Assembly: GCA_009773495.1 (NCBI GenBank)
Contig: WSXW01000012.1
Location: forward strand, 1-55,515
Direction of reading: 5' to 3'
Origin: Bacillota bacterium
Lineage (GTDB): Bacteria; Bacillota; UBA994
DNA length: 55,515 nt
Below the pieces are notes generated by a model. It had not been told where the DNA came from and did no database searches. It saw only the letters and a program-made list of their open reading frames with translations. Below are positions 1-15,380 of the stretch, piece after piece (position 1 is the stretch's first letter; the number at the start of each line of letters is the position of its first letter). Made by a program: the position numbers and the translations under genes.

Positions 1-623
1 GTGTTTCAATCCACGCACCCGCAGGGGGTGCGACGTAACTCCATTTTATTGTCCTCCTTTTAATTCGGTTTCAATCCACGCACCCGCAGGGGGTGCGACC
101 CTTTAACGACGCTTCTGCTGCATCTATGTTAGGTTTCAATCCACGCACCCGCAGGGGGTGCGACGTTAATTCAAATGTCGTTTTTTACACCGAGTGAAGT
201 TTCAATCCACGCACCCGCAGGGGGTGCGACCCCTAAAAAATCACGCTTTTGCAAATCGGTTTTGTTTCAATCCACGCACCCGCAGGGGGTGCGACGATGT
301 TAATCGGCACTAATCCTTTACGATTAGGGTTTCAATCCACGCACCCGCAGGGGGTGCGACCAAAAGATAAATCAACAACCAACCACCAAAAGAGTTTCAA
401 TCCACGCACCCGCAGGGGGTGCGACCCGCAAGGGGTATGACTTCCGGCTACTAGACGGTAGTTTCAATCCACGCACCCGCAGGGGGTGCGACTTTGCTCT
501 TCCCGTTGCGTCCGTCACCATAGAGGTTTCAATCCACGCACCCGCAGGGGGTGCGACCGTTGGTGCCAATCGTGCAGAAGGGTACGTCGATGTTTCAATC
601 CACGCACCCGCAGGGGGTGCGAC

Positions 624-657
624 TTTCAAGCTTAACCTGTTTGCGAACAGGTTAAGT
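624..657 (-). other. Spacer that is an 11-bp perfect hairpin
   Basis: Most of this spacer is an inverted repeat: CTTAACCTGTT (631-641), a 4-nt loop TGCG, and AACAGGTTAAG (646-656). It was probably taken from a terminator or palindromic operator in the target. The crRNA guide itself could fold. Confidence 0.85.
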
Positions 658-1940
658 GTTTCAATCCACGCACCCGCAGGGGGTGCGACTCACCGGGTGC
701 GCCTAAAGACTGAATGGTACGCGTTTCAATCCACGCACCCGCAGGGGGTGCGACTAAAGACGTGCAGGATGCTACCGACGAGTATATGTTTCAATCCACG
801 CACCCGCAGGGGGTGCGACGATATACCCAGAATGACCCGGCGACGTAAGCTAGGTTTCAATCCACGCACCCGCAGGGGGTGCGACCAGTAATGACTGGAA
901 CTTGAAGTTCGCCATTGTAGTTTCAATCCACGCACCCGCAGGGGGTGCGATGCTCATCATGTGGCTTCCTCCTTTCCCTTCGGCGTTTCAATCCACGCAC
1001 CCGCAGGGGGTGCGACGCTGCGGGTGCAGTATGGCACCGAGCATAGGAGGTTTCAATCCACGCACCCGCAGGGGGTGCGACGCGGACTTGTACTGCAGTT
1101 GCCGCCGGAACTCGAAGTTTCAATCCACGCACCCGCAGGGGGTGCGACTCCTGAGGCGCGCCTTAATGACCGCAACAACGAGGTTTCAATCCACGCACCC
1201 GCAGGGGGTGCGACCGGTTATAGCCATCACCCGCGCTACCTGATCGCCGTTTCAATCCACGCACCCGCAGGGGGTGCGACTTTGAGAGCAGGTACTTGCC
1301 CCAAACGCTTTCGTTTCAATCCACGCACCCGCAGGGGGTGCGACGGGCGACCTTATCCCCCTGTCTGCTGTGGGTAGGGTTTCAATCCACGCACCCGCAG
1401 GGGGTGCGACGGTCCTATTGTGATGGCGCTGCTGACGGGTATGAGTTTCAATCCACGCACCCGCAGGGGGTGCGACCATTGTTGCAACATATGTATCCCT
1501 TCTCCTCTCGGTTTCAATCCACGCACCCGCAGGGGGTGCGACTTGCGGCTGCTAGGCAGGGTACGATATTCGGATGACGTTTCAATCCACGCACCCGCAG
1601 GGGGTGCGACGACTTTAGACTCGCTGCCCTCACAGAGGGATATTGTTTCAATCCACGCACCCGCAGGGGGTGCGACTTGCATTGCAGTGCTTATGATGGC
1701 AGCGGTCAAAGTTTCAATCCACGCACCCGCAGGGGGTGCGACCTGTTCACCATTCCACCCCATCGTTAGGAGAGTGTTTCAATCCACGCACCCGCAGGGG
1801 GTGCGACCAAACCCGCGGTAGTGGTACCACCAGAGCAATTTGTTTCAATCCACGCACCCGCAGGGGGTGCGACTTGATGCAGAGCTTCGCGACGATAACG
1901 CAGTTGATGTTTCAATCCACGCACCCGCAGGGGGTGCGAC

Positions 1941-1974
1941 TGGCCAGCAAGGGCGATGCTGTGCAGCGGTTTAA
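1941..1974 (-). other. Spacer overlapping the spacer at 2072-2105
   Basis: Ends with CAGCGGTTTAA, which is also the start of the spacer at 2072-2105. Merging them gives a 57-nt target segment. The three bases that follow the shared block in the other spacer are GAA, again TTC on the crRNA-sense strand 5' of this protospacer. Confidence 0.75.
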
Positions 1975-2071
1975 GTTTCAATTCACGCACCCGCAGGGGG
2001 TGCGACGTGTTTCGGCTCAAGCAAATAACCGGCATTGCGGTTTCAATCCACGCACCCGCAGGGGGTGCGAC

Positions 2072-2105
2072 CAGCGGTTTAAGAATGAGGTAGACAAAGT
2101 AAAGG
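2072..2105 (-). other. Newer partner of second overlapping spacer pair
   Basis: Begins CAGCGGTTTAAGAATG; its first 11 nt equal the last 11 nt of the spacer at 1941-1974. By array position it is two acquisitions younger and lies on the PAM side of the older protospacer. Confidence 0.75.
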
Positions 2106-5100
2106 GTTTCAATCCACGCACCCGCAGGGGGTGCGACGTTCATAAAGTACTTCAACGCGCTTAGTGAGGAGTTTCAATCCACGCACCCGCAGGGGGTGCG
2201 ACGCAGTCCAACAAGGTGCACAAGTACAAACAGCGATCGTTTCAATCCACGCACCCGCAGGGGGTGCGACGGGGGCGCGATTATGGCTATGTAGTCTCAG
2301 CGGAGGTTTCAATCCACGCACCCGCAGGGGGTGCGACAACGTCTATCCTCTCTAGGTACGCCGCCCCTGTGTTTCAATCCACGCACCCGCAGGGGGTGCG
2401 ACCTGTACAAAATAGGGCATAAATACAGGATTTTATGGTTTCAATCCACGCACCCGCAGGGGGTGCGACATAGAAGGGGGGTAGCAAATGTGAATGTAAA
2501 AGAGTTTCAATCCACGCACCCGCAGGGGGTGCGACCATCTACAACATGTTAGCCAGTCCGTAATTGACGTTTCAATCCACGCACCCGCAGGGGGTGCGAC
2601 TCATACGTTACCCCAAGAGCGCAACATCGATTTTGTTTCAATCCACGCACCCGCAGGGGGTGCGACAATGCGGGTCTGGCGCAGCGAGGGGCCAATCAGA
2701 GTTTCAATCCACGCACCCGCAGGGGGTGCGACTATATACCGCAATGACCCAGACGTATTCCTAGACGTTTCAATCCACGCACCCGCAGGGGGTGCGACTC
2801 ACTATCACCAAGATAGCGTGCGCGTCGTTAAGGTTTCAATCCACGCACCCGCAGGGGGTGCGACGGTTATAAGCCTTACGGTAACACAGGCAACAGGGTT
2901 TCAATCCACGCACCCGCAGGGGGTGCGACCTGCGCGTTGTTCATTGCTTCGTGCGTCTATATAGTTTCAATCCACGCACCCGCAGGGGGTGCGACTGCCA
3001 GAAGTGGCTACATCTTCGTATATGACAAAGTTTCAATCCACGCACCCGCAGGGGGTGCGACCATAACCACAGTGAATGTACCACCTCAAACCTTTGTTTC
3101 AATCCACGCACCCGCAGGGGGTGCGACATCAGTGCAACAGGGGTGCAGTATCGTGCAATGGGTTTCAATCCACGCACCCGCAGGGGGTGCGACCCTGTCG
3201 CCCGGTCTGCCCAAGGTATCGCTTAAGGTTTCAATCCACGCACCCGCAGGGGGTGCGACTTTCACCTAACGCCAGCTGACCGCCATAAAGAAGGTTTCAA
3301 TCCACGCACCCGCAGGGGGTGCGACCATCGGAGTACAGTCCCTGCGCCTCGCGTCGTCTGTTTCAATCCACGCACCCGCAGGGGGTGCGACATGTCTTCC
3401 TTGTTGTTAATGTAAAGGTTATCTGGTTTCAATCCACGCACCCGCAGGGGGTGCGACGGGCACGATAGATCAGATTACAGGTGCATTACACGTTTCAATC
3501 CACGCACCCGCAGGGGGTGCGACCGTAAACGGAGCTATCTCCGAGGTAGGTATACAGTTTCAATCCACGCACCCGCAGGGGGTGCGACTGTGGTTAACGT
3601 TTAAGTTTGCTTCCGTGTTGTGGTTTCAATCCACGCACCCGCAGGGGGTGCGACAGGTAAGCCTTGGTACAGCAATAAGGACCTCTTTGTTTCAATCCAC
3701 GCACCCGCAGGGGGTGCGACCGTGTCGTTAGTCGAGGCCCCTACGGATTTTTTAGTTTCAATCCACGCACCCGCAGGGGGTGCGACCGGAGTTCTCCCGT
3801 AGTCAGCTGGTAGAGAACATGTTTCAATCCACGCACCCGCAGGGGGTGCGACTTACTTTGGTCACAATAAGCGTATAATGAGAGTGTTTCAATCCACGCA
3901 CCCGCAGGGGGTGCGACTTCCGGGGGCTGTTCTCCGTCCTACTGCTGTCAAGTTTCAATCCACGCACCCGCAGGGGGTGCGACGCGGCTGGTGCTGTAGC
4001 TGACGTGGTGGTAACAGTGTTTCAATCCACGCACCCGCAGGGGGTGCGACGGGGCACACAGACAGCAATAGATTTCCACACAGATAGTTTCAATCCACGC
4101 ACCCGCAGGGGGTGCGACGTTTGAAAGCGTCGCAGGGGCGCAGAACAAGGTGTTTCAATCCACGCACCCGCAGGGGGTGCGACGCTACAGCCTCCGCTCA
4201 AGGGCACATAGCCCTAGTTTCAATCCACGCACCCGCAGGGGGTGCGACCCGCTCGGGAAGCGGCCAGGCTACGCGCATTATCGTTTCAATCCACGCACCC
4301 GCAGGGGGTGCGACACGCAAGCAGCGCTAAGGGCGGGATACAGTGAGAGTTTCAATCCACGCACCCGCAGGGGGTGCGACGTCGTTGGTGGGGATTCACC
4401 TGGGGATTCATTAGTTTCAATCCACGCACCCGCAGGGGGTGCGACTTTCATCTGTCTTTCATAATGGTTCTGGGTGCATGTTTCAATCCACGCACCCGCA
4501 GGGGGTGCGACGCCTCATTCCAGTATAGGCGGCGGTGTAGACCAGTTTCAATCCACGCACCCGCAGGGGGTGCGACACGATACAGCCTGGGAGCGTGCGT
4601 TATCAAAGCAGTTTCAATCCACGCACCCGCAGGGGGTGCGACTCGGAACAGCGGAGATCGGAACAGCGGCAGTCGGTTTCAATCCACGCACCCGCAGGGG
4701 GTGCGACTTTCTCGCCGCATTGCTGCAGCGTCCATTTTTCGGTTTCAATCCACGCACCCGCAGGGGGTGCGACAGACGGTGTGCTATGCATTAACGTAGG
4801 TTCACTAGTTTCAATCCACGCACCCGCAGGGGGTGCGACTCCATTGCTAATTCCTCCTTGAGTTTCCGGAGTGTTTCAATCCACGCACCCGCAGGGGGTG
4901 CGACTTGCCTGGGTCCGTTGTAATAGAGAGCGAAGACGTTTCAATCCACGCACCCGCAGGGGGTGCGACTTGTGGGGATGAACCTTCCAGGATTTGACTG
5001 TATGTTTCAATCCACGCACCCGCAGGGGGTGCGACTTAGTCGTGAGGCAACAAAGAGCAGTAGCAGGGGGTTTCAATCCACGCACCCGCAGGGGGTGCGA

Positions 5101-5563
5101 CGTGGTAAATATCACATCTACCCTAATTTTATTGTGTTTCAATCCACGCACCCGCAGGGGGTGCGACGCATCATTTTGTTTACCATAGATTCAGAGTCTT
5201 GTTTCAATCCACGCACCCGCAGGGGGTGCGACGAGTTAATGTACCTCTTGCAATTCCCCACTAACGTTTCAATCCACGCACCCGCAGGGGGTGCGACGCG
5301 AGCCTTTTAAGCCAGACGCAGTGGGCTACGTGGTTTCAATCCACGCACCCGCAGGGGGTGCGACGGCAGGGTTTACCCTTGCCTAGTGTATCCTTAAGTG
5401 TTTCAATCCACGCACCCGCAGGGGGTGCGACCATGGGGTAATTGGCGCGTAAATCGATTGTAGGGGTTTCAATCCACGCACCCGCAGGGGGTGCGACTTA
5501 ACTAAGATGGCTTGATAGTCATATGGTTGTAGTTTCAATCCACGCACCCGCAGGGGGTGCGAC

Positions 5564-5596
5564 CACGTGGAACGTCTCGCAAGTCCATCCTAGTGG
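5564..5596 (-). other. Spacer overlapping the spacer at 6289-6323
   Basis: The last 18 nt of this spacer (starting GCAAGTCC, ending CTAGTGG) are identical to the first 18 nt of the spacer at 6289-6323. Both derive from overlapping protospacers in one target, in the same orientation, offset by 17 nt. In the newer spacer the next bases are GAA, i.e. TTC on the crRNA-sense strand immediately 5' of this older protospacer, the type I-C PAM. Confidence 0.9.
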
Positions 5597-6288
5597 GTTT
5601 CAATCCACGCACCCGCAGGGGGTGCGACGCGTTGCCGGGGATACTACGTTGCGTTTACTGCAAGTTTCAATCCACGCACCCGCAGGGGGTGCGACATAGA
5701 GGGTGGGTGATTGAACCCGACACTGTCGAAGTTTCAATCCACGCACCCGCAGGGGGTGCGACCAGGAACGCGCCGAGACTATCCGTGAGGTAGCAGTTTC
5801 AATCCACGCACCCGCAGGGGGTGCGACGCCGAAAAGTCCTAAAAACTCACGTAACTGAGTAGTTTCAATCCACGCACCCGCAGGGGGTGCGACAGGCATT
5901 TGCAGCTAGGGATGGTTCTGCATTTCCGGTTTCAATCCACGCACCCGCAGGGGGTGCGACCTGCCAACTGTGCCGGGATAGAGTCAGCGAAGTAGTTTCA
6001 ATCCACGCACCCGCAGGGGGTGCGACAGCACCCTTATGTGTTGTCTGAGGACCTCTGGGGTTTCAATCCACGCACCCGCAGGGGGTGCGACGTTAATAAC
6101 TCTAAGCTGTGGGGAGCTTACGAAGTTTCAATCCACGCACCCGCAGGGGGTGCGACATAAGGTGGTGTTTGTGCCGCCTATGTCGTTAAAGTTTCAATCC
6201 ACGCACCCGCAGGGGGTGCGACCCTACGGTGGACTGTACTGCTCAAGGATACGCTGGTTTCAATCCACGCACCCGCAGGGGGTGCGAC

Positions 6289-6323
6289 GCAAGTCCATCC
6301 TAGTGGGAATCCTACTGGACCAA
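6289..6323 (-). other. Newer partner of overlapping spacer pair (7th from leader)
   Basis: Shares 18 nt with the spacer at 5564-5596 and extends past it on the PAM side, giving a 50-nt reconstructed target segment. It lies 11 units closer to the leader, so it was acquired later, as expected for primed or repeated adaptation against the same element. Confidence 0.9.
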
Positions 6324-6486
6324 GTTTCAATCCACGCACCCGCAGGGGGTGCGACGGGGCCTCGTGGCTAACGGCTTTAGTTCTTTAATGTTTCAATCCA
6401 CGCACCCGCAGGGGGTGCGACCGCGATATTCCGGAGTTATCAATGATAACTAAGGTTTCAATCCACGCACCCGCAGGGGGTGCGAC

Positions 6487-6520
6487 CCACGCCCCCGCGC
6501 GGGGGGCGACCCAGTTGGTA
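6487..6520 (-). other. Spacer containing a foreign CRISPR repeat fragment (4th from leader)
   Basis: The first 24 nt of this 34-nt spacer, starting CCACGCCCCCGCGC and ending GGGGGGCGAC, match the local repeat at 20 of 24 positions and have the layout of a type I-C repeat. Two of the four differences are the two partners of one stem base pair (A:T becomes C:G), so the hairpin is kept. The other 10 nt, CCAGTTGGTA, look like the adjoining spacer of that other array. A local repeat that mutated by chance would not be expected to change compensatorily. The donor is not identifiable here. Confidence 0.8.
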
Positions 6521-6756
6521 GTTTCAATCCACGCACCCGCAGGGGGTGCGACACACAGCAAGGTGTCCTGCTCATTCTGACCAAGAGTTTCAATCCACGC
6601 ACCCGCAGGGGGTGCGACGAGGCCGTGAAGCAGAAGGTTGATGCTATAACAGTTTCAATCCACGCACCCGCAGGGGGTGCGACAACTAACGAAGTTACAG
6701 TGGATTGGGTGGTCAAGTTTCAATCCACGCACCCGCAGGGGGTGCGACAGTATATG

Positions 6757-6787
6757 CCCAAGAGCATTGCGCTGCAATGCTCTTGGG
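6757..6787. repeat. 14-bp perfect inverted repeat at leader-repeat junction
   Basis: CCCAAGAGCATTGC (6757-6770), loop GCT, and its exact reverse complement (6774-6787). It ends 8 bp before the first repeat. There is no T-tract, so it is not a standard terminator; it may be a leader recognition element for adaptation or an RNA structure upstream of the first crRNA. Confidence 0.85.
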
Positions 6788-6874
6788 ATGCACTCCCGCG
6801 AACCTAATCTGTCTGGGCAATCTGTTAACGTGTTTGGAGATGTTTTAGGCACAAGAGCCTGCTACCATCAGTAT

Positions 6875-6915
6875 CGCGAACCTACCGATGATAACATGGG
6901 TGCTGTAGGTTCGCG
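6875..6915. repeat. 11-bp perfect inverted repeat in distal leader
   Basis: CGCGAACCTAC (6875-6885) and GTAGGTTCGCG (6905-6915) with a 19-nt loop, just downstream of the cas2 stop. The 10-nt core recurs as a direct copy at 6797-6806. No T-tract follows in the cas direction. Confidence 0.8.
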
Positions 6916-6922
6916 CTGGTGC

Positions 6923-7213
6923 TCAAGTGATGAGGATGCCTTCCGGATCGTAGCCGGGCTTAGCTCCAACGTGTTCTACACGCTTCTTCCAATTACTCCC
7001 TAGGAAATAGTAACGCAGGCTGTCGGTGTTGTGGTTTATTACGTCCTCTAGCTGCTTGCGCAATTGAAGGTATTGGTGAGGCTCTACTAGACACTCGAAA
7101 ACAGAGTTTTGGACGCGTTGCCCATGGTTTTCGCATATGCGTGCTACCCTGCGCAAGCGACAATTTCCGTGCTCGCTAGATGTTTCTACATCGTAAGTGA
7201 TTAGCACCATCAT
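6923..7213 (-). CDS. cas2: CRISPR-associated endonuclease Cas2, type I-C
   Basis: A 96-residue protein of normal Cas2 length. The N-terminus MMVLITYDV is the conserved first beta strand with the metal-binding Asp at position 8, followed by RRVARICENHG, the usual first helix. Cas2 dimerises and bridges two Cas1 dimers in the integrase that inserts new spacers at the leader end. It starts 12 bp after cas1 and is the last gene of the operon, 174 bp from the array. Confidence 0.95.
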   Translation of the reverse strand: MMVLITYDVETSSEHGNCRLRRVARICENHGQRVQNSVFECLVEPHQYLQLRKQLEDVINHNTDSLRYYFLGSNWKKRVEHVGAKPGYDPEGILIT

Positions 7214-7225
7214 GGTAGGTCGCTC

Positions 7226-8251
7226 CTAACGCCAAAAGAATGGGGGATAATCATCTAAGTCACCCCTCAGGTAACGAGCCAAAAGCATGGCTTGAGTGTA
7301 GGGAAGTAACCCAATCGGTATTTTCTCATTCAGAAATGGGTGTTCTATCTCTTCCTGTTTGCGTTTTTGCCAAGCTTCCAAAACTGCCTTTCGGGTGCTA
7401 GGGTCCATGATCACAGCGCCATTCTCTTTCTGCAAGAAACCATCTGCCGTTACCTGTCGTCGGTTAATCATGGTAAGTACCAGCCGATCAGCGAGATAAG
7501 GGCGAAGCTCTTCCATTAAGTCTAGGGCAAGGCCTGCCCTTCCAGGACGATCACGATGCAGAAAACCCATTTGGGGATCCAACCCTACGGTCTCTAAGGC
7601 AGATGCGGCATCATGAGCCAGTAAAGTGTAAAGAAACGATAGCATTGCATTGACCTTATCTGTAGGCGGGCGGCGAACGCGGCGCGAGAACGAAAATTCC
7701 TCTTTCTGCGCCACAATGAGGTGGTCAAAAACTCCAAAGTACTCTGCTGCCGCCTCCCCTTCCAAACCACGAAGGACATCCAAGTCAGGACTATTCGTTA
7801 CCCTTGAGATTACGTTCGACAGTGTCTTGATAGCCACAGAGAGGGGCTCCTGGGTGTGTACATGGTCGCGGACCGCGCGTTGGAGCGAGGTGCGGCTGTT
7901 ATGAATTTTAGCCACCACAAAGTGCTTAGCCAGATTATTACTGGCTTCAAGGTCTTCTGTACGACGATGCTGATGCCGTCGCAACAGTACGTTGCCCGAC
8001 ACTGTTCCACTGACACGGGCTAGAAAACGGCCATGCTCTGTCAAGAACGAGAGACCCACTCCTCGCTCGCAGCAAAGCGACATCAGAGATGGGCTAGCTC
8101 CGGCGTAGCCAAAACATACAATGCCTTCCAAATTATGGACGGGGATGCGTAGTTTCACTTCTTCAGCTACACGAACCACCACGTTTTCTCCGTCGCGAGC
8201 GAGATAGCTATCCGGTCCAGTGACATAAAGAGTGTTCAGTAGACGCCGCAT
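7226..8251 (-). CDS. cas1: CRISPR-associated endonuclease/integrase Cas1, type I-C
   Basis: The true start is the ATG at 8251, which overlaps the cas4 stop as TAATG and has an AGGAGG-like site upstream; a longer in-frame reading to 8350 lies inside cas4. This gives 341 residues beginning MRRLLNTLYV. Catalytic Cas1 features are visible: Glu164 in RGLEGEAAAEYF, His232 in GFLHRDRPGR and the acidic pair near 244-247 (LALDLMEEL). It integrates prespacers with Cas2 and works with the adjacent Cas4, which in I-C helps select PAM-bearing prespacers. Confidence 0.97.
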   Translation of the reverse strand: MRRLLNTLYVTGPDSYLARDGENVVVRVAEEVKLRIPVHNLEGIVCFGYAGASPSLMSLCCERGVGLSFLTEHGRFLARVSGTVSGNVLLRRHQHRRTEDLEASNNLAKHFVVAKIHNSRTSLQRAVRDHVHTQEPLSVAIKTLSNVISRVTNSPDLDVLRGLEGEAAAEYFGVFDHLIVAQKEEFSFSRRVRRPPTDKVNAMLSFLYTLLAHDAASALETVGLDPQMGFLHRDRPGRAGLALDLMEELRPYLADRLVLTMINRRQVTADGFLQKENGAVIMDPSTRKAVLEAWQKRKQEEIEHPFLNEKIPIGLLPYTQAMLLARYLRGDLDDYPPFFWR

Positions 8252-8943
8252 TACTTGCTCTCCTCCTGGTCTAGGACAGACTTGATATACGCCGACACAG
8301 AATGGCGCTTCCTTGCCAACTTCGGCTGACACGGCTCTTTTAGGGAACAATTGCTACAAGATTTGCTATAGATTGCGGCAGGAGTGGCTCCTGTGATGAA
8401 GCAAGCGTGCATGCGGGCTGCTAATTCTTTTGTACGGTTCCTTAGAGAATCAGTCAGTTCGACGACCTGCTTCCTCCTTGTCTGCCAGTAATAGAGGTCT
8501 CCGTGAGTGATGTGCGTGTTCATCATCTCTTCTATAGAAATCGCCTGCGCACACAACTGTACCTCATCGCGACTATCGGGTTTTGGTTTCCCGCGCTTAA
8601 ACTCCACTGGCCGGGGCACCCAAGAACCAACGACGCCGGGAAGCTGAACAGAGTTTGGACTGCTGGTTTTTACCCTATGGAACTCAACGAGGTCGGCGAC
8701 GCCTTGTAGACCCAAGCTTCTACTCAGGACGGGGACGCTGCGCACGATGCGCAGGTCCCCTCTTGATTCATCGCAGAATGGGTCATCGACGCGCTCATGG
8801 ACATGGCGCCCCTCGACGGTTAGAAGATTTTCCTGCCAAACCTGCTCGACGTGGATAAGAGCCCACTGTCTCTCGCAGAAAGCGAAATGCTGTATGCCTG
8901 ATAGAGGAAGGAGTGCGTCATCTAGATAATTGTTACGCACCAT
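8251..8943 (-). CDS. cas4: CRISPR-associated exonuclease Cas4, type I-C
   Basis: A PD-(D/E)xK, RecB-like nuclease with a 4Fe-4S cluster. Using the ATG at 8943, which overlaps the cas7 stop by 11 bp, the protein has 230 residues and begins MVRNNYLDDALLPLSG. Visible motifs are the first cluster Cys in HFAFCERQWALIH, RHVHERV (RecB motif I), PVEFKRG (motif III Glu-x-Lys), QLCAQAISIEEM, and the C-terminal cluster CSNCSLKEPC. An in-frame extension upstream to 9009 lies inside cas7 and is not needed. Role: trimming prespacers and setting PAM and orientation. Confidence 0.95.
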   Translation of the reverse strand: MVRNNYLDDALLPLSGIQHFAFCERQWALIHVEQVWQENLLTVEGRHVHERVDDPFCDESRGDLRIVRSVPVLSRSLGLQGVADLVEFHRVKTSSPNSVQLPGVVGSWVPRPVEFKRGKPKPDSRDEVQLCAQAISIEEMMNTHITHGDLYYWQTRRKQVVELTDSLRNRTKELAARMHACFITGATPAAIYSKSCSNCSLKEPCQPKLARKRHSVSAYIKSVLDQEESK

Positions 8944-9781
8944 CAAAGACGTCAGGTTCCAGCCCGTCCAACGGTTCAATCGTGACCCTTGGTAAGCTGT
9001 TGCTTCCAAGAACCTCTATTTTGACGCTTCGATGGACTTTTGCCGAGGAGTACTGCCCGCTCATGCAATTGTGCCTCCACCAGATGACCTTCACGACTTC
9101 CATGCTGCCCTCGGGGCGCGCAGCGGAGACATCGTTCAGAAACAGTGTTTTCAGAGCCTCCAGTAGCTTGTCGGCGTCCGCATCACTGAAGCCGGTTTTT
9201 TCGGCCAACTGGCAGTTGATACTGCCGAATGTCTTGTAGACACCAAATTCCACGCGGTGCTTCATGCCCATGGTGTCACTGCCCTTTTTATCTGGGTCTT
9301 TCTCGGTTTCGAGGTTGACGCTCTTAGTAATCTGAAGGCTGCTGATGTCTATAGGCTCAACACTGACCGCACTCTGAATTGTCACAGGGCCGCGCACGCC
9401 AATAGAAACTGAATCGCTATCGCCGCTGCCCTTTGCCTTAAACGCAAACACTTGCCCAAAGGCACGCACGTCATACCACGTTTTGCAGGCTAGTTCTGCT
9501 TTCTTCCTCTTGTCACTTTCATCTCCAATCTCTTTACTCCCTTCAAAGCGGGCATTGAGGCTTCGATAGTCATCCTTTCTGTTGTCGTCCGATTGCACAA
9601 AGACCTGTTCTCCTAAATCCTGCAAACGGTTGCGCAGCTTGCGCTTTAGGCAGACATCTGACACCTCACCATAGCCCTCATAATCGACGCGTGGTCGGTT
9701 GCCGTTAAGCGGATCGCCGTTTGGGTTTGCCTTTTTTACTATAAACATCACTGCAAAGTCAATTTTGTTTGTTAAACTCAT
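8933..9781 (-). CDS. cas7: Cascade backbone protein Cas7 (Csd2), type I-C
   Basis: 282 residues. The N-terminus contains the Csd2 hallmark NPNGDPLNGNRPR after a beta strand (DFAVMFIVKKA), then the SDVCLKRKLRNRL segment. Cas7 polymerises along the crRNA to form the effector backbone. The start ATG shares ATGA with the cas8c stop, so the two are translationally coupled. Length and motifs match the family and no defects were seen. Confidence 0.96.
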   Translation of the reverse strand: MSLTNKIDFAVMFIVKKANPNGDPLNGNRPRVDYEGYGEVSDVCLKRKLRNRLQDLGEQVFVQSDDNRKDDYRSLNARFEGSKEIGDESDKRKKAELACKTWYDVRAFGQVFAFKAKGSGDSDSVSIGVRGPVTIQSAVSVEPIDISSLQITKSVNLETEKDPDKKGSDTMGMKHRVEFGVYKTFGSINCQLAEKTGFSDADADKLLEALKTLFLNDVSAARPEGSMEVVKVIWWRHNCMSGQYSSAKVHRSVKIEVLGSNSLPRVTIEPLDGLEPDVFDGA

Positions 9782-10182
9782 TTAATTTCCCCTCCATTTG
9801 TACCTTTATTATTTTCTCCTTGCCTTTGGCGCAGGGCTTGCCTTTGCGCAAAGAATCCGAGCAGATATTTCCCATCAAGTGGACTGTCAGACTCGTATTC
9901 GCCTACATTAAACAACGCCTTGATGCTCTCGATCTGATTAAGATACCATCCAGCTCCGTTTAGCTGTTGTATGTATGGATTCAACTGCTGAGTGAACAAC
10001 ATATTCCACGTGCGGAATGGGCGCTGTGAAAACGCATTCATGTAACGTATCGCATTTGTCGCCCGGGCGTCATCTTTAGCTGTACCCTGCTTATATCTCG
10101 CTGCCGATTCAATTCTGTCCGCCACCGCAAGTAGTCTTCCATAAAGATAGTCGCGGTCGGTTCTCTGATCTTCTAGAACCAC
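9778..10182 (-). CDS. cas11c: Internally translated small subunit Cas11c
   Basis: Type I-C systems are known to make the Cas11 small subunit from an internal start in cas8c. In this gene a strong Shine-Dalgarno GAGGAGG (minus strand, 10191-10197) lies 8 nt before an in-frame GTG at 10182. That would produce the last 134 residues of Cas8c (starting [18 protein letters not shown]), a helical segment of the expected size. The start is inferred; the upstream Met codons nearby have no comparable ribosome site. Confidence 0.7.
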   Translation of the reverse strand: MVLEDQRTDRDYLYGRLLAVADRIESAARYKQGTAKDDARATNAIRYMNAFSQRPFRTWNMLFTQQLNPYIQQLNGAGWYLNQIESIKALFNVGEYESDSPLDGKYLLGFFAQRQALRQRQGENNKGTNGGEIK

Positions 10183-11748
10183 TTCAAATTCCTCCTCTTT
10201 ATAATCGTGGTAATATCGTTTGACCATTGCGCAGGCTGCGCAGAGCACCTGCTCCCAACCGCGCCAACGCTCGGCAGCGCCTTTCGCGTCGGTTTTCTCA
10301 AGTGCGAGCGGATTAGAAGCACGATGAATAGCCGCATTTACCATATCGCGCGGAATCCGCTCTCCGTCAAACACACAATGCAGCAGACGCTCCCGCGCCG
10401 CCTTCTTCTGTTTGTCGTAGTTAGCGTCTGTTTGACTTCTTTTTCTGCCCAACACAGCATCGATAATCCTGTCAAAGGACGGTGCGCCGATAAAATACCC
10501 TGGCTTGTACTTTCCATCCTTGTCTTTGCTAAACGGTTGGTACCACTTGCAGGTACTGTGCCAATTGACCACGCGCTCTAGATACTCATTTTCTCCAAGC
10601 CTGCGATAATACGTGATAGACATACGCCCAGTCCTATCGGTCGTGGCATCTGTTGCCATTACAGCGATGTCGCGCGCGTGTGCTCTTAGCCTATTTACGT
10701 TGCCAGAACTGAGCAGAGCGGCATTCAGCAACCTTGCATAGTCAATGAATGTTTGGTTGCCAGCTTCAATTAGCTTGTCCGCATCGCTTTCTATCTCCGA
10801 CTCATAAATTCCATAACTATCTTCATGAAAGCTTGGCACCTGCGATGCTTTATCAACCCCCCATGCCACAATTGCCTGTGTGTCACAACCGTATCCTCGG
10901 GTAGAAATCAACCATCGTAACGCCTGGTGAGCCTTTTGGGAGGCCTCGTAGCTTACGGCAACTACCTGATGTGCATTATGAAACCGTCCTCGATAAACAA
11001 AATTGTTATTGTCGTTTTCCTTTGCATTGGACGAAATCAGCTTTGCACTGGCGGCCCTAGAATTTATCTTCTTGGGATGATTCTCGGTCAGAGCGAGCAT
11101 TTTCCCCGATGCGTAACACATACCGTGTTTGCCTTCCATAGATGAAACATATTGTATATGCTTCTCTTGAACCGTTTTGTCCATCCATACTCTATTCTCC
11201 AGATCTCCTTCAATTGCGACTGCAAATCGTATACCAACCTTGTCAATTGTTAATTTGGCTTTGTCGCCTTCTTGCTTTGTGTTCCGCAATTCTTCAGGTG
11301 TAAAAACTCCGACATCAATCAAATCTCTGAGAACAGTACCCTTTTTTACATATGAGTATACTGCTGTTACCTTTGGGTGTGAATATTTTGAGGCACACCA
11401 CGCCTTTAGGTTCTCAATATACATAGTGTAATGTCGCCTGTTGGGAAACCCAGTGAATGCGTTGTAGTCCCCTGCTACATATTTCACTTGGTCAAATAGT
11501 GGGTGCGGGGAGACATTCGCTGTTCGGCCTTCAGAATCATCCGTGCACGGCGCGCATATTGAGATTCCCTGTCCTCTATCCCTTGAGGCATCAACAAAAG
11601 TACCGTCTGAACGAATATGTATTTCGACAGATGTCTTAAGCAAGGTATGCCCGATGGGCAACAGCATCTTATCCTGCCCATCAAGACTGACCCCAACTGC
11701 TCCCGCGCACGCCTCATATGTTTGGTACAAGTCTTGTATCCAGCTCAT
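9778..11748 (-). CDS. cas8c: Cascade large subunit Cas8c (Csd1)
   Basis: 656 residues, the signature large subunit of type I-C, identified by its place between cas5 and cas7 and by Csd1-like sequence (N-terminus [16 protein letters not shown]). It recognises the PAM and opens target DNA in the Cascade complex. It overlaps cas5 by ATGA at its start and cas7 by ATGA at its end. The C-terminal third also encodes a separately translated small subunit (see cas11c). Confidence 0.93.
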
Positions 11749-12497
11749 GCCTCGTCACCACTTTCCCCTAACAGTGCCCTAAACTCTGGCTCGTTTAGCC
11801 CAGAGAAGCCAGCTTCATCCTCAAATACTTTGGCTTTCATTGGCTTAATAAACCGTGTCAAGATAACGGGCGAATCGTCATTGGGCGCTGGAAACCGGAT
11901 GTAGCCATTCTCCAGCCTCGCTGACTTCCACAGCCGCACAGACATCTCATCTTTTCCCGTTTCGTCTGGGTAATCAAAGCCGTGGACCATCACGCCGAAA
12001 TTCAGCTTACCGCAGCCGTCGTAAAAGCCTTTACCTTCCCCAAATACGCAAGGCTCAACGTAGCCCTGACATTCGCGCGTACCGAGAAATATGTCGCGCC
12101 GTCCGCCACGCTCTATCATGCGCTTCGCGATGTTGTGGTGCTTATGCTCGTTTCGGTCGTGAGCAAGCTCCGGACGATGCTCATTCCACTCGAAATGGGC
12201 CCTGACCTGATAGCACACGTCCTTAAGATAGGTGTAATAAGCTAGATCGTTTTCTGGGGAAGTGTACTTGATCGGCCGCATGCCCTTTGACTGAGTTTGA
12301 ATTCTCTTCATCACTCGCGCCTCGTCAATGTACCAGATCAGTGTCGGCTTCCAGTACACGCTCTCTAGAACGCCTTTCAACGCCTGATATGTGGGAATCT
12401 GGTACGAGAATTTCTCCCCGCCAATGCGGGTTATTGGGTCGGAGAACAGCGCGTAGTTTCCATACACGACAAATTCCACAGTGTTTCTGTGCTGCAT
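11745..12497 (-). CDS. cas5: Cas5c crRNA-processing endoribonuclease
   Basis: 250 residues. In type I-C, which has no Cas6, Cas5c (Cas5d) cuts the precursor crRNA at the base of the repeat hairpin. The N-terminus [18 protein letters not shown] is typical. Residues matching the known Tyr-Lys-His catalytic triad are visible: Tyr48 in SVYWKP, and Lys119-His120 in NEHKHHN. A GGAGGGTG site precedes the ATG, 12 bp after cas3; the stop overlaps the cas8c start. Confidence 0.96.
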
Positions 12498-12509: not shown

Positions 12510-14894
12510 CTATACACACAAAAATTCCGGATCTCCTTTAAAAACAACGCCAAGACTGACTGAGTCATGATAGGCTTTGTCCAACACATAGATGTCGTCG
12601 TCAATGAGAGACAGGGCGTGCATCTCCTCTAGCTTCTTCTTCTGGTATGGATACAGCGAAACGGAATACCGCCCCATCTCGCGGAGCAGCCGCGCCTTAT
12701 CCTTGAGATTGGCTTTCTTGTATGCCGCGGCGAGCTCCACTCCGCGCTCATACGGGACAAGAACGCTGGTTGTATTTCGTTCAATTACGTAAAACTGTTC
12801 ACCTGCCGTTTGAAACGCCTGAAGAAGTCTTGGTAGTGGTGCTTGACCACCGAAGTTAATGTATGTGCCACGGCCTTTCTTGTTACTTGACAGTAAGTCA
12901 TAGATGTTTCCACCATCATATGGATAATTCATCCCTTCACTGCGCTTGTAGAAATACTCCTCATAATAGCGGTCCATCACCGTGTGAGACTGCAAATCAT
13001 CCACCAATTCACCAAGTATCCGTGATGTTACATCACTACCGCACTTAATATCAGGTAATCTTGACAGATTCTCCTCTGCGAGATTCACAACATAGACCTC
13101 ACGCCCTTCTGGGTCCTCGCCGTTACGGTTACACCGCCCCGCGGCCTGCATAATGCTATCGAGCCCAGCCAAGGCGCGCACGACACTGGCGAACGAAATG
13201 TCAACACCAGCTTCTATAAGCTGCGTGCTGATACACAAAATGCGTTCGTTCTTGAACACCTTCTTATGGTTGATCGTCTCTTGCATAGATTCGATGGCAT
13301 CCATACGGTGAGCCGGACACATTAACGTGCTTAGGTGCACCAGCTTTATCTGTGTTTCAGTGTTCTCGGACATGTGCGTTTTCACTGATTTGTAAAGATT
13401 AGAAGCATCCGTTTTTGTGTTAAGGATAACGAGACAGTTGCCGGCTGCATCAAGCTTTTCAAGAACGAAGTCGCGCAAGGCCTCGGTTGAATAGCCTCCC
13501 CTTATCCTGCAATCCTTGATACTCGTTCGTTTGAGCCGCTCAAAGACTTCGGTGGTATCAGCTATAAGGTCACAACTTGAGGATAGCCGGATTGGGGTCT
13601 CTACTTTGTCAATGAGCGGCTGCGTTGCGGTGCAAAGCAACATAGTAGATTTGCCAAATGTGTGTAGGTAATTGAGAGCATCGTTAAATAGGTGCACGCA
13701 CTTGATCGGCAGCGACTGGACTTCATCAAAAATCAAGACCGAGTTGGCCATGTTATGTAGTTTGCGTAGATTCCCAGCCTTATGAGAAAAGACACTCTCC
13801 AAAAACTGCACCAGCGTTGTGATGATAATGGGTTGACTCCAACGATCGGTCAGAAGACGGTAGGCTTGTGCCTCGTTCTCATCGTCCGGCCGAACAAAAT
13901 TAGAATGATGCTCCAGTACAAACTCCTCGTCGTCGCGACACTGAAGTGCTTTCCGTATCTCACCTGCCGTCTGCTCCAAAACCGACAAGTAAGGGATAAC
14001 ATAAATGACATGCCCCATACTGTGCTCTTTGGCGTGATTTAACGCAAAGCGTAGACTGGAGAGTGTCTTGCCTCCGCCTGTTGGCACGTGCAATCGGTAT
14101 ACGCCGCACGGTCGTGCAGAAGCGCTTAGGCATTTCTCGGAAATATCCTTGCGGATGCGAGCAATATCTGAGTTAATCGGAAAGACCGAAATGTGCTTTT
14201 CAAGCCTGTTGGCATATTCTCCCCACGGTGGAGTAAAAAGCTGTGCCTCAGGCTTTTTATCTATATCGAAACAGTACGCATTGTAACGGTCGGAGTCTAC
14301 CAAACATGAAAAAACGCTTTTGACGAGCATATGCACCATAAACCATGCGTCGAGTTTTTCTGCACGGCAAATCTTAATGAATGCCGTTAATTCATCGTCA
14401 CACAATAACAACAACTCCTCTATGCTTTCGGACAGAACGCCCTCTCTCTCGAAAGCCTTTGCCACTTCTTCGTAGTGAAGTGCTTCTTTGTTGGCTGCAA
14501 GCCTGTCTCTCAGCGGCGTATCGCCTTGCGGCGAGATACTGTCCATGAGACCACCGTGGTGCCCTGCGGCGCAAATTGAGGCAGTCTCCGCCGCCAATAA
14601 TAAACCCTTCTCGCTCAAGCCGACTTCGTAGATGTATTTCGCGCCTTGCGTCGCATGTATGACCGAACCCCTGCGCGGCTTGTCCCCACCGCTCTTCTTG
14701 CATTGGGCACTGACTCTAAGATATTGGACAAACTCATCGGAAAACTTGCCCATATCGTGAAAGAGCGCTGCCAGGCGTGCCATTGAGGGCAGGCGAAACT
14801 TCCCACCAAGCATACTAGCGTAAGCGGCGGTTTCCCTTAAATGGTCGACTGTCAGCTGTTCTCTGCCCTCGGTCGAAATCCTTGATATATACAC
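12510..14894 (-). CDS. cas3: Cas3 HD nuclease-helicase, type I-C
   Basis: The preferred start is GTG at 14894, directly after AAAGGAGGATCC; this gives 794 residues beginning (M)YISRISTEG. An upstream ATG at 14924 has no ribosome site. An N-terminal HD nuclease is visible (His46-Asp47 in FHDMGK, His80, His112-His113 in GHHGG), followed by a superfamily 2 helicase with Walker A PTGGGKT, DEVQ in VLIFDEVQSLP, and motif VI QAAGRCNRNG. Cas3 is recruited by target-bound Cascade and degrades the displaced strand. It is the first gene of the operon. Confidence 0.96.
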   Translation of the reverse strand: MYISRISTEGREQLTVDHLRETAAYASMLGGKFRLPSMARLAALFHDMGKFSDEFVQYLRVSAQCKKSGGDKPRRGSVIHATQGAKYIYEVGLSEKGLLLAAETASICAAGHHGGLMDSISPQGDTPLRDRLAANKEALHYEEVAKAFEREGVLSESIEELLLLCDDELTAFIKICRAEKLDAWFMVHMLVKSVFSCLVDSDRYNAYCFDIDKKPEAQLFTPPWGEYANRLEKHISVFPINSDIARIRKDISEKCLSASARPCGVYRLHVPTGGGKTLSSLRFALNHAKEHSMGHVIYVIPYLSVLEQTAGEIRKALQCRDDEEFVLEHHSNFVRPDDENEAQAYRLLTDRWSQPIIITTLVQFLESVFSHKAGNLRKLHNMANSVLIFDEVQSLPIKCVHLFNDALNYLHTFGKSTMLLCTATQPLIDKVETPIRLSSSCDLIADTTEVFERLKRTSIKDCRIRGGYSTEALRDFVLEKLDAAGNCLVILNTKTDASNLYKSVKTHMSENTETQIKLVHLSTLMCPAHRMDAIESMQETINHKKVFKNERILCISTQLIEAGVDISFASVVRALAGLDSIMQAAGRCNRNGEDPEGREVYVVNLAEENLSRLPDIKCGSDVTSRILGELVDDLQSHTVMDRYYEEYFYKRSEGMNYPYDGGNIYDLLSSNKKGRGTYINFGGQAPLPRLLQAFQTAGEQFYVIERNTTSVLVPYERGVELAAAYKKANLKDKARLLREMGRYSVSLYPYQKKKLEEMHALSLIDDDIYVLDKAYHDSVSLGVVFKGDPEFLCV

Positions 14895-15380
14895 GCGGAT
14901 CCTCCTTTGCCAGTGAGGTTGCATCTCTTAACGGATGATGTTGGCGGTTTGGTAATCTCTCCTGCACTGAGGTGGTGGAAGAGGTGCGTCATTTCTTATC
15001 TGTAATTCTCATGGCAGTAATAGTCTGCAGGGGTATTTCTCGTGAGCTAGTTTCGCAATGAAGCGCTCCACACCGCGCTTCACTCCTTAAGACTCGCTCG
15101 CTGTCGCATATTGGAGTGAACGACACGCACATAAGCCCCGTGCATAATCATAACTGGCGTAAGTGATCATAGCTGGACTAGCGCGAAACTGAGTGTGTCG
15201 AATATCTGTGGAACAGCTATGCTTGTATAAGATAGAAAAGCAGCCTGTCCCAGCTGCTCTTACTTGTGTCTCTCTACCTATATTTTCTATCATGAAGGGG
15301 GATTTCCTGCAAGCGCTCAGTGTCTAATGGTGACAATACTAATTAAGATTTTGTCGACCGTAAATGGAATGCTTTAAGGG
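14895..15380. other. Intergenic region upstream of the cas operon
   Basis: About 490 bp with no convincing gene. It must hold the cas promoter near its left end, but no clear -35/-10 pair was found. It contains an 8-bp hairpin TGAAGCGC/GCGCTTCA (15059-15082, 8-nt loop) without a T-tract. A 68-codon open frame on the minus strand (15087-15293) has no homolog-like features. Confidence 0.5.

What the first reader, a model, noticed from the sequence alone, without database searches (positions are those of the whole stretch)
6487..6520. A recent spacer carries part of another type I-C CRISPR array
24 of its 34 nt have the form of a different type I-C repeat (20/24 identical to the local one, with a compensatory A:T to C:G stem change) and the other 10 nt look like that array's own spacer. 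On the crRNA strand the PAM-proximal seed falls in those 10 unique nt (TACCAACTGG), so the guide should not attack the host's own array. It is the 4th spacer from the leader, hence recent. This suggests targeting of an incoming element or relative that carries a CRISPR array, i.e. CRISPR against CRISPR.
Basis: partly seen in the sequence, partly recalled or inferred. Interest (0 to 1): 0.85.

Follow-up and report, generated by a model that had tools for sequence, protein, structure and literature searches.

The report
Spacer holding a foreign CRISPR repeat
One recent immune memory in this bacterium's CRISPR array was copied from DNA that itself carried a CRISPR repeat, the repeat used by its close relatives and also found in some phages; the donor was not found, and the resulting guide RNA may be cut in two before it can work.

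Summary
Spacer 4 from the leader (6487-6520) is 10 unique nt plus the first 24 nt of a different type I-C repeat. The completed repeat, GTCGCCCCCCGCGCGGGGGCGTGGATTGAAAC, is real: the captured part matches 24/24 the array repeat of four of seven held genomes of the same family, three of them with their own divergent I-C cas genes beside the array. It also occurs in at least 120 other genome stretches and in 8 viral contigs, five of which carry it alone or as a two-repeat mini-array. The own genome holds no such array. So this is a normal-length spacer captured from foreign DNA across a junction with a repeat. "CRISPR against CRISPR" is true of the target, not shown as a function. The full 34 nt was found nowhere, so a long array (plasmid, ICE, relative's chromosome) and a phage solitary repeat or mini-array both stay open. 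The spacer also carries a whole Cas5d-type hairpin; internal cutting would leave a 10-nt guide, too short to interfere. It is rare: one among about 1,750 distinct spacers surveyed.

The parts
6487..6520 (-). spacer 4: TACCAACTGGGTCGCCCCCCGCGCGGGGGCGTGG (crRNA sense)
6487..6510 (-). first 24 nt of a foreign type I-C repeat, including its whole hairpin
   Evidence: 24/24 match to repeats; only place in the own genome within 3 mismatches
6511..6520 (-). 10 unique nt TACCAACTGG, PAM-proximal seed
   Evidence: PAM TTC from overlapping spacers; no exact TTCTACCAACTGG in the own genome
6455..6486 (-). flanking local repeat GTCGCACCCCCTGCGGGTGCGTGGATTGAAAC, perfect
6521..6552 (-). flanking local repeat, perfect
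1..6748 (-). type I-C array, 102 spacers in the window (6 more and the distal end on contig C50, 69805-70231)
6749..6922 (-). leader region between cas2 and the first repeat (6717-6748)
   Evidence: position
6923..7213 (-). cas2
   Evidence: TIGR01573 above cut-off
7226..8350 (-). cas1 (type I-C)
   Evidence: TIGR03640 above cut-off
8251..9009 (-). cas4
   Evidence: TIGR00372 above cut-off
8933..9781 (-). cas7 (csd2)
   Evidence: TIGR02589 above cut-off
9778..11748 (-). cas8c (csd1)
   Evidence: TIGR01863 above cut-off
11745..12497 (-). cas5d, the presumed crRNA processing enzyme
   Evidence: TIGR01876 above cut-off
12510..14924 (-). cas3 (helicase and HD nuclease)
   Evidence: TIGR01587 and TIGR01596 above cut-off

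Best explanation
The host's own complete type I-C system took up, by ordinary PAM-directed adaptation, a 34-bp piece of foreign DNA that ran from unique sequence into a type I-C repeat of another kind, and stored it as a normal spacer. The carrier was incoming DNA. Given an incoming carrier, I put a long array on a plasmid, integrative element or a relative's chromosome at about 0.55, and a phage or other element with a solitary repeat or mini-array at about 0.45. Shown: the two-part structure, exact identity with a living repeat of close relatives and of some phages, absence of such a repeat elsewhere in the own genome, normal length, a complete cas operon, TTC PAM for other spacers of this array. 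Inferred: the TTC next to this protospacer, the donor, and the effect. Most likely effect: the guide's seed reads only the 10 unique nt, so it can attack that one junction and not the host's array. Its efficacy is doubtful because the spacer transcript contains a complete Cas5d-type hairpin; cutting there would leave a 10-nt guide.
For: 24/24 match to the repeat of four same-family genomes, three with their own I-C cas genes beside it, of at least 120 genome stretches and of 8 viral contigs. No other copy in the own genome within 3 mismatches. Commonest spacer length and perfect flanking repeats. PAM TTC in both overlapping spacer pairs of this array. Complete cas set. No other spacer of normal length among about 1,750 distinct ones scores above 14 for a piece of either repeat. 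Own stem folds at -12.8 and captured stem at -15.1 kcal/mol, same 7-bp stem and 5-nt loop. Cas5d cuts at the hairpin base (PMC3890593) and a type I-C guide needed at least 27 nt (PMC8406640).
Against: The 34-nt protospacer was found in no collection: viral contigs, phages, plasmids, genome contigs, 15 class and 398 phylum genomes (one 3-mismatch hit, chance, without TTC). The PAM beside the true protospacer is therefore unseen. The first 51 other spacers of the array match nothing in the family genomes, 18 recent ones match no phage, and search patterns from four match no viral contig, so there is no independent trace of the donor. Internal Cas5d cutting is not certain: Cas5d also reads the single-stranded 3' part of the repeat, of which only 3 nt are present.
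Confidence: 0.87

Rival explanations
1. Sub-case of the best explanation: the donor was a phage carrying the repeat alone (solitary repeat unit, candidate RNA anti-CRISPR) or as a mini-array; the host then holds memory of a phage's CRISPR mimic.
For: The exact repeat stands alone in viral contigs L009, L011, L014 and as two copies in L013 and L016; L016 and L013 carry further scattered copies. L014 has portal and large terminase, L016 Erf and SSB, L011 primase/helicase. A type I-C Racr has been shown to work (PMC10651486).
Against: None of the known phage copies is preceded by TACCAACTGG. Cellular arrays hold far more copies of the repeat.
Confidence: 0.38
2. Sub-case of the best explanation: the donor was a long type I-C array on a plasmid, integrative element or a relative's chromosome that entered by conjugation, uptake or transduction.
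For: Same-family genomes carry 20 to 86 copies in arrays. Nitratidesulfovibrio plasmids carry near-identical repeats in tens of copies. Each array offers many spacer/repeat junctions: 37 suitably placed TTC in 187 relatives' spacers.
Against: None of the arrays read here has a spacer ending TACCAACTGG.
Confidence: 0.48
3. Self-derived: the spacer came from a second array with this repeat that the host's own lineage or a resident plasmid once had and has lost.
For: Family members use this repeat, so an ancestor may have had it.
Against: No trace of it in the 97.8% complete genome; no exact TTCTACCAACTGG either.
Confidence: 0.09
4. Not a captured repeat: a local repeat that decayed, or a recombination product of two arrays.
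For: 20/24 identity to the local repeat.
Against: Exact identity to another living repeat, with the stem pair kept; normal 34-nt length between two perfect local repeats; the last 8 nt of a repeat are absent.
Confidence: 0.02

Closest known systems
E. coli CRISPR3 'anti-CRISPR' spacers against type I-F cas genes (Touchon and Rocha 2010, PMC2886076)
   Same: Spacers whose target is a CRISPR-Cas system; proposed to keep out elements that carry one.
   Different: They match cas genes and sit in residual arrays without the cognate cas genes. Here the target is a repeat junction of another I-C variant and the host has a complete system.
Phage solitary repeat units / RNA anti-CRISPRs (Racr; Camara-Wilpert 2023, PMC10651486)
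   Same: The captured 24 nt is exactly part of a type I-C repeat that occurs alone in viral contigs; a type I-C Racr inhibits CRISPR.
   Different: Here the repeat piece is a spacer in a host array, not a viral gene; the donor is unknown.
Virus-borne mini-CRISPR arrays (SPV1/SPV2, PMC6858448)
   Same: Viral contigs L013 and L016 carry the same repeat as two-copy arrays; such elements are possible donors.
   Different: There viral arrays target other viruses; here a host spacer would target such an array.
Ordinary type I-C spacer acquisition (TTC PAM, 33-35 nt spacers)
   Same: Length, position and cas genes are all ordinary.
   Different: The protospacer spans a CRISPR repeat, so the transcript carries an extra processing hairpin.

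Membership tests
Genuine type I-C spacer | normal length between perfect repeats in an array next to a complete type I-C cas operon | tested here: met
Genuine type I-C spacer | protospacer with 5'-TTC PAM in foreign DNA | tested here: inconclusive
   TTC shown for two other protospacers of this array; the protospacer of this spacer was not found
Piece of another type I-C array | repeat part identical to a repeat used in real arrays with I-C cas genes | tested here: met
Piece of another type I-C array | the 10 unique nt are the end of a spacer in such an array | tested here: inconclusive
   no array with this spacer end found
Phage solitary repeat unit / Racr as donor | this repeat exists alone in viral genomes | tested here: met
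Phage solitary repeat unit / Racr as donor | a viral copy preceded by TTCTACCAACTGG | tested here: not met
   no viral contig in the collection has TTCTACCAACTGGGTCGC
CRISPR acting against CRISPR | the guide interferes with an element carrying the repeat | not testable with these tools
   needs a plasmid interference assay
CreA-like regulatory crRNA | a PAM plus short seed match in the own genome | tested here: not met
   no exact TTCTACCAACTGG in the own genome

The most novel reading that the evidence does not exclude
The donor was a phage with a solitary I-C repeat (an RNA anti-CRISPR gene). The host then holds immune memory against a CRISPR mimic, at the price of a guide that its own Cas5d cuts, so the captured mimic partly acts on from inside the array.
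Probability: 0.2. Interest if true: 0.8.

Novelty: new variant of a known kind. Interest (0 to 1): 0.55.

Why it matters
It is an ordered record that one CRISPR system captured a piece of another, or of a phage's copy of one. It shows that repeats on mobile DNA are visible to adaptation, and it sets two testable questions: can a guide target a solitary repeat unit despite the risk of autoimmunity, and does a repeat inside a spacer spoil its own processing? Each I-C repeat has a TTC on the other strand (GTTTCAATCC), so protospacers starting there would hit the host's own array; none of 295 spacers begins so, in line with only junctions with unique seeds surviving.

Tried and rejected
Exact and relaxed searches for the junction in all open collections: none; the one 3-mismatch hit lies in a long array, has CAT instead of TTC and is expected by chance. 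A regulatory role through a 10-nt seed in the own genome: no exact match. Tracing the donor through neighbouring spacers: family genomes (first 51), phages (18) and viral contigs (patterns from four) gave nothing. Reverse direction (relatives' spacers holding the local repeat): none. Apparent extra repeat-in-spacer cases of 79-101 nt are skipped degenerate repeats of the same array; the 57-nt window case is spacer 4 itself seen in the wrong register. The two primary papers on Cas5d processing were not held; a review was used instead.

Full report
What is there. The window starts inside a type I-C array (1-6748) followed by a leader (6749-6922) and a complete operon read on the minus strand: cas3, cas5d, cas8c, cas7, cas4, cas1, cas2, each above the NCBIfam cut-off. 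Contig C50 of the same genome ends in the same array with a one-base variant terminal repeat, so the high-coordinate side is the leader side. The 4th spacer from the leader, 6487-6520, is 34 nt long, the commonest length here. In crRNA sense it is TACCAACTGG followed by GTCGCCCCCCGCGCGGGGGCGTGG.

The repeat piece is real. The 24 nt are 20/24 identical to the local repeat GTCGCACCCCCTGCGGGTGCGTGGATTGAAAC. They differ by a compensatory A:T to C:G change (positions 6 and 18) and two loop bases. Completed with ATTGAAAC they give a repeat that exists exactly: 20, 86, 84 and 2 copies in four of seven same-family genomes. Of 93 more distant relatives none has it exactly and one has a single copy with one mismatch. 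Three of the four family genomes have I-C cas genes beside the array, with Cas1 about 57%, Cas7 about 34% and Cas5 25-30% identical to the host's. The repeat also occurs in at least 120 genome stretches over many phyla. Within the own genome only spacer 4 holds it.

It also exists in viruses. Eight IMG/VR contigs carry it. In L009, L011 and L014 it stands alone; in L013 and L016 it forms a two-repeat mini-array; the other three have it at contig ends or in a longer array. L016 and L013 have further scattered copies. L014 has a portal protein and large terminase, L016 Erf and SSB, L011 a phage primase/helicase. Solitary repeats of this kind have been shown to act as RNA anti-CRISPRs, one of them type I-C (PMC10651486).

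Orientation and seed. Spacers 7 and 18 overlap by 18 nt and spacers 71 and 73 by 11 nt; in both pairs the inner start is preceded by TTC, the PAM known for type I-C (PMC8406640). With TTC the guide starts at TACC and its seed is in unique DNA. Read the other way round, the protospacer would be preceded by AAT. The guide should therefore not attack the local array. The opposite strand of every I-C repeat does contain TTC, and none of 295 spacers starts there.

How unusual. In about 1,750 distinct spacers from 110 loci, no other spacer of normal length scores above 14 for a piece of either repeat. The chance of this 24-mer in the 108 spacers of the host is about 1e-11. A literature search found spacers against cas genes (PMC2886076) but none against a repeat junction; the library is partial.

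How it probably works. Adaptation took the piece from incoming DNA at a junction between unique sequence and a repeat. The transcript of spacer 4 can form the same 7-bp stem and 5-nt loop as the host repeat, somewhat more stable (-15.1 against -12.8 kcal/mol for the repeats alone); in the longer transcript it competes with other pairings. Cas5d cuts at the base of this hairpin and reads both hairpin and the 3' single strand (PMC3890593). Only UGG of the 3' part is present, so cutting is possible but not certain. If cut, the product is an 11-nt handle, a 10-nt guide and a hairpin; type I-C interference in Xanthomonas needed at least 27 nt of guide. So the memory may be wholly or partly mute. 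This is inference.

What is not known. The 34-nt protospacer was not found in viral contigs, phages, plasmids, GTDB contigs or 398 genomes of the phylum. Of the other spacers, 51 were tried against family genomes, 18 against phages and patterns from four against viral contigs, without a match. Whether the donor was a phage or a cell-type array stays open.

Verdict. Observation confirmed. Interpretation partly supported: a CRISPR repeat was captured; that it serves as CRISPR against CRISPR is unproved. A new variant of a known kind, interest 0.55.

Noticed in passing
window 6289-6323 and 5564-5596: Spacers 7 and 18 were taken 17 nt apart from the same site of one element (18-nt overlap), spacers 71 and 73 likewise (11-nt overlap); both pairs show TTC as PAM.
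   Followed up: yes
L016:4333-5229 and L013:3608-10943: Single viral contigs carry three or more scattered type I-C repeats, exact or nearly so, among phage-type genes; candidate RNA anti-CRISPRs or mini-arrays.
   Followed up: partly
L041, L044, L046 (same-family genomes): Relatives have a divergent I-C operon (Cas5 25-30%, Cas7 about 34% identical) but closer Cas1 and Cas2 (about 57-65%), with a different repeat stem.
   Followed up: partly
window 1 and G000:C50:69805-70233: The array is split between two contigs; spacers at the break may be missing from the assembly.
   Followed up: partly
L044 array: One relative's array holds the same spacer (CAGCGTCATCAACTACGAGGCACTCCGGCTGGAGA) four times in a row.
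   Followed up: no
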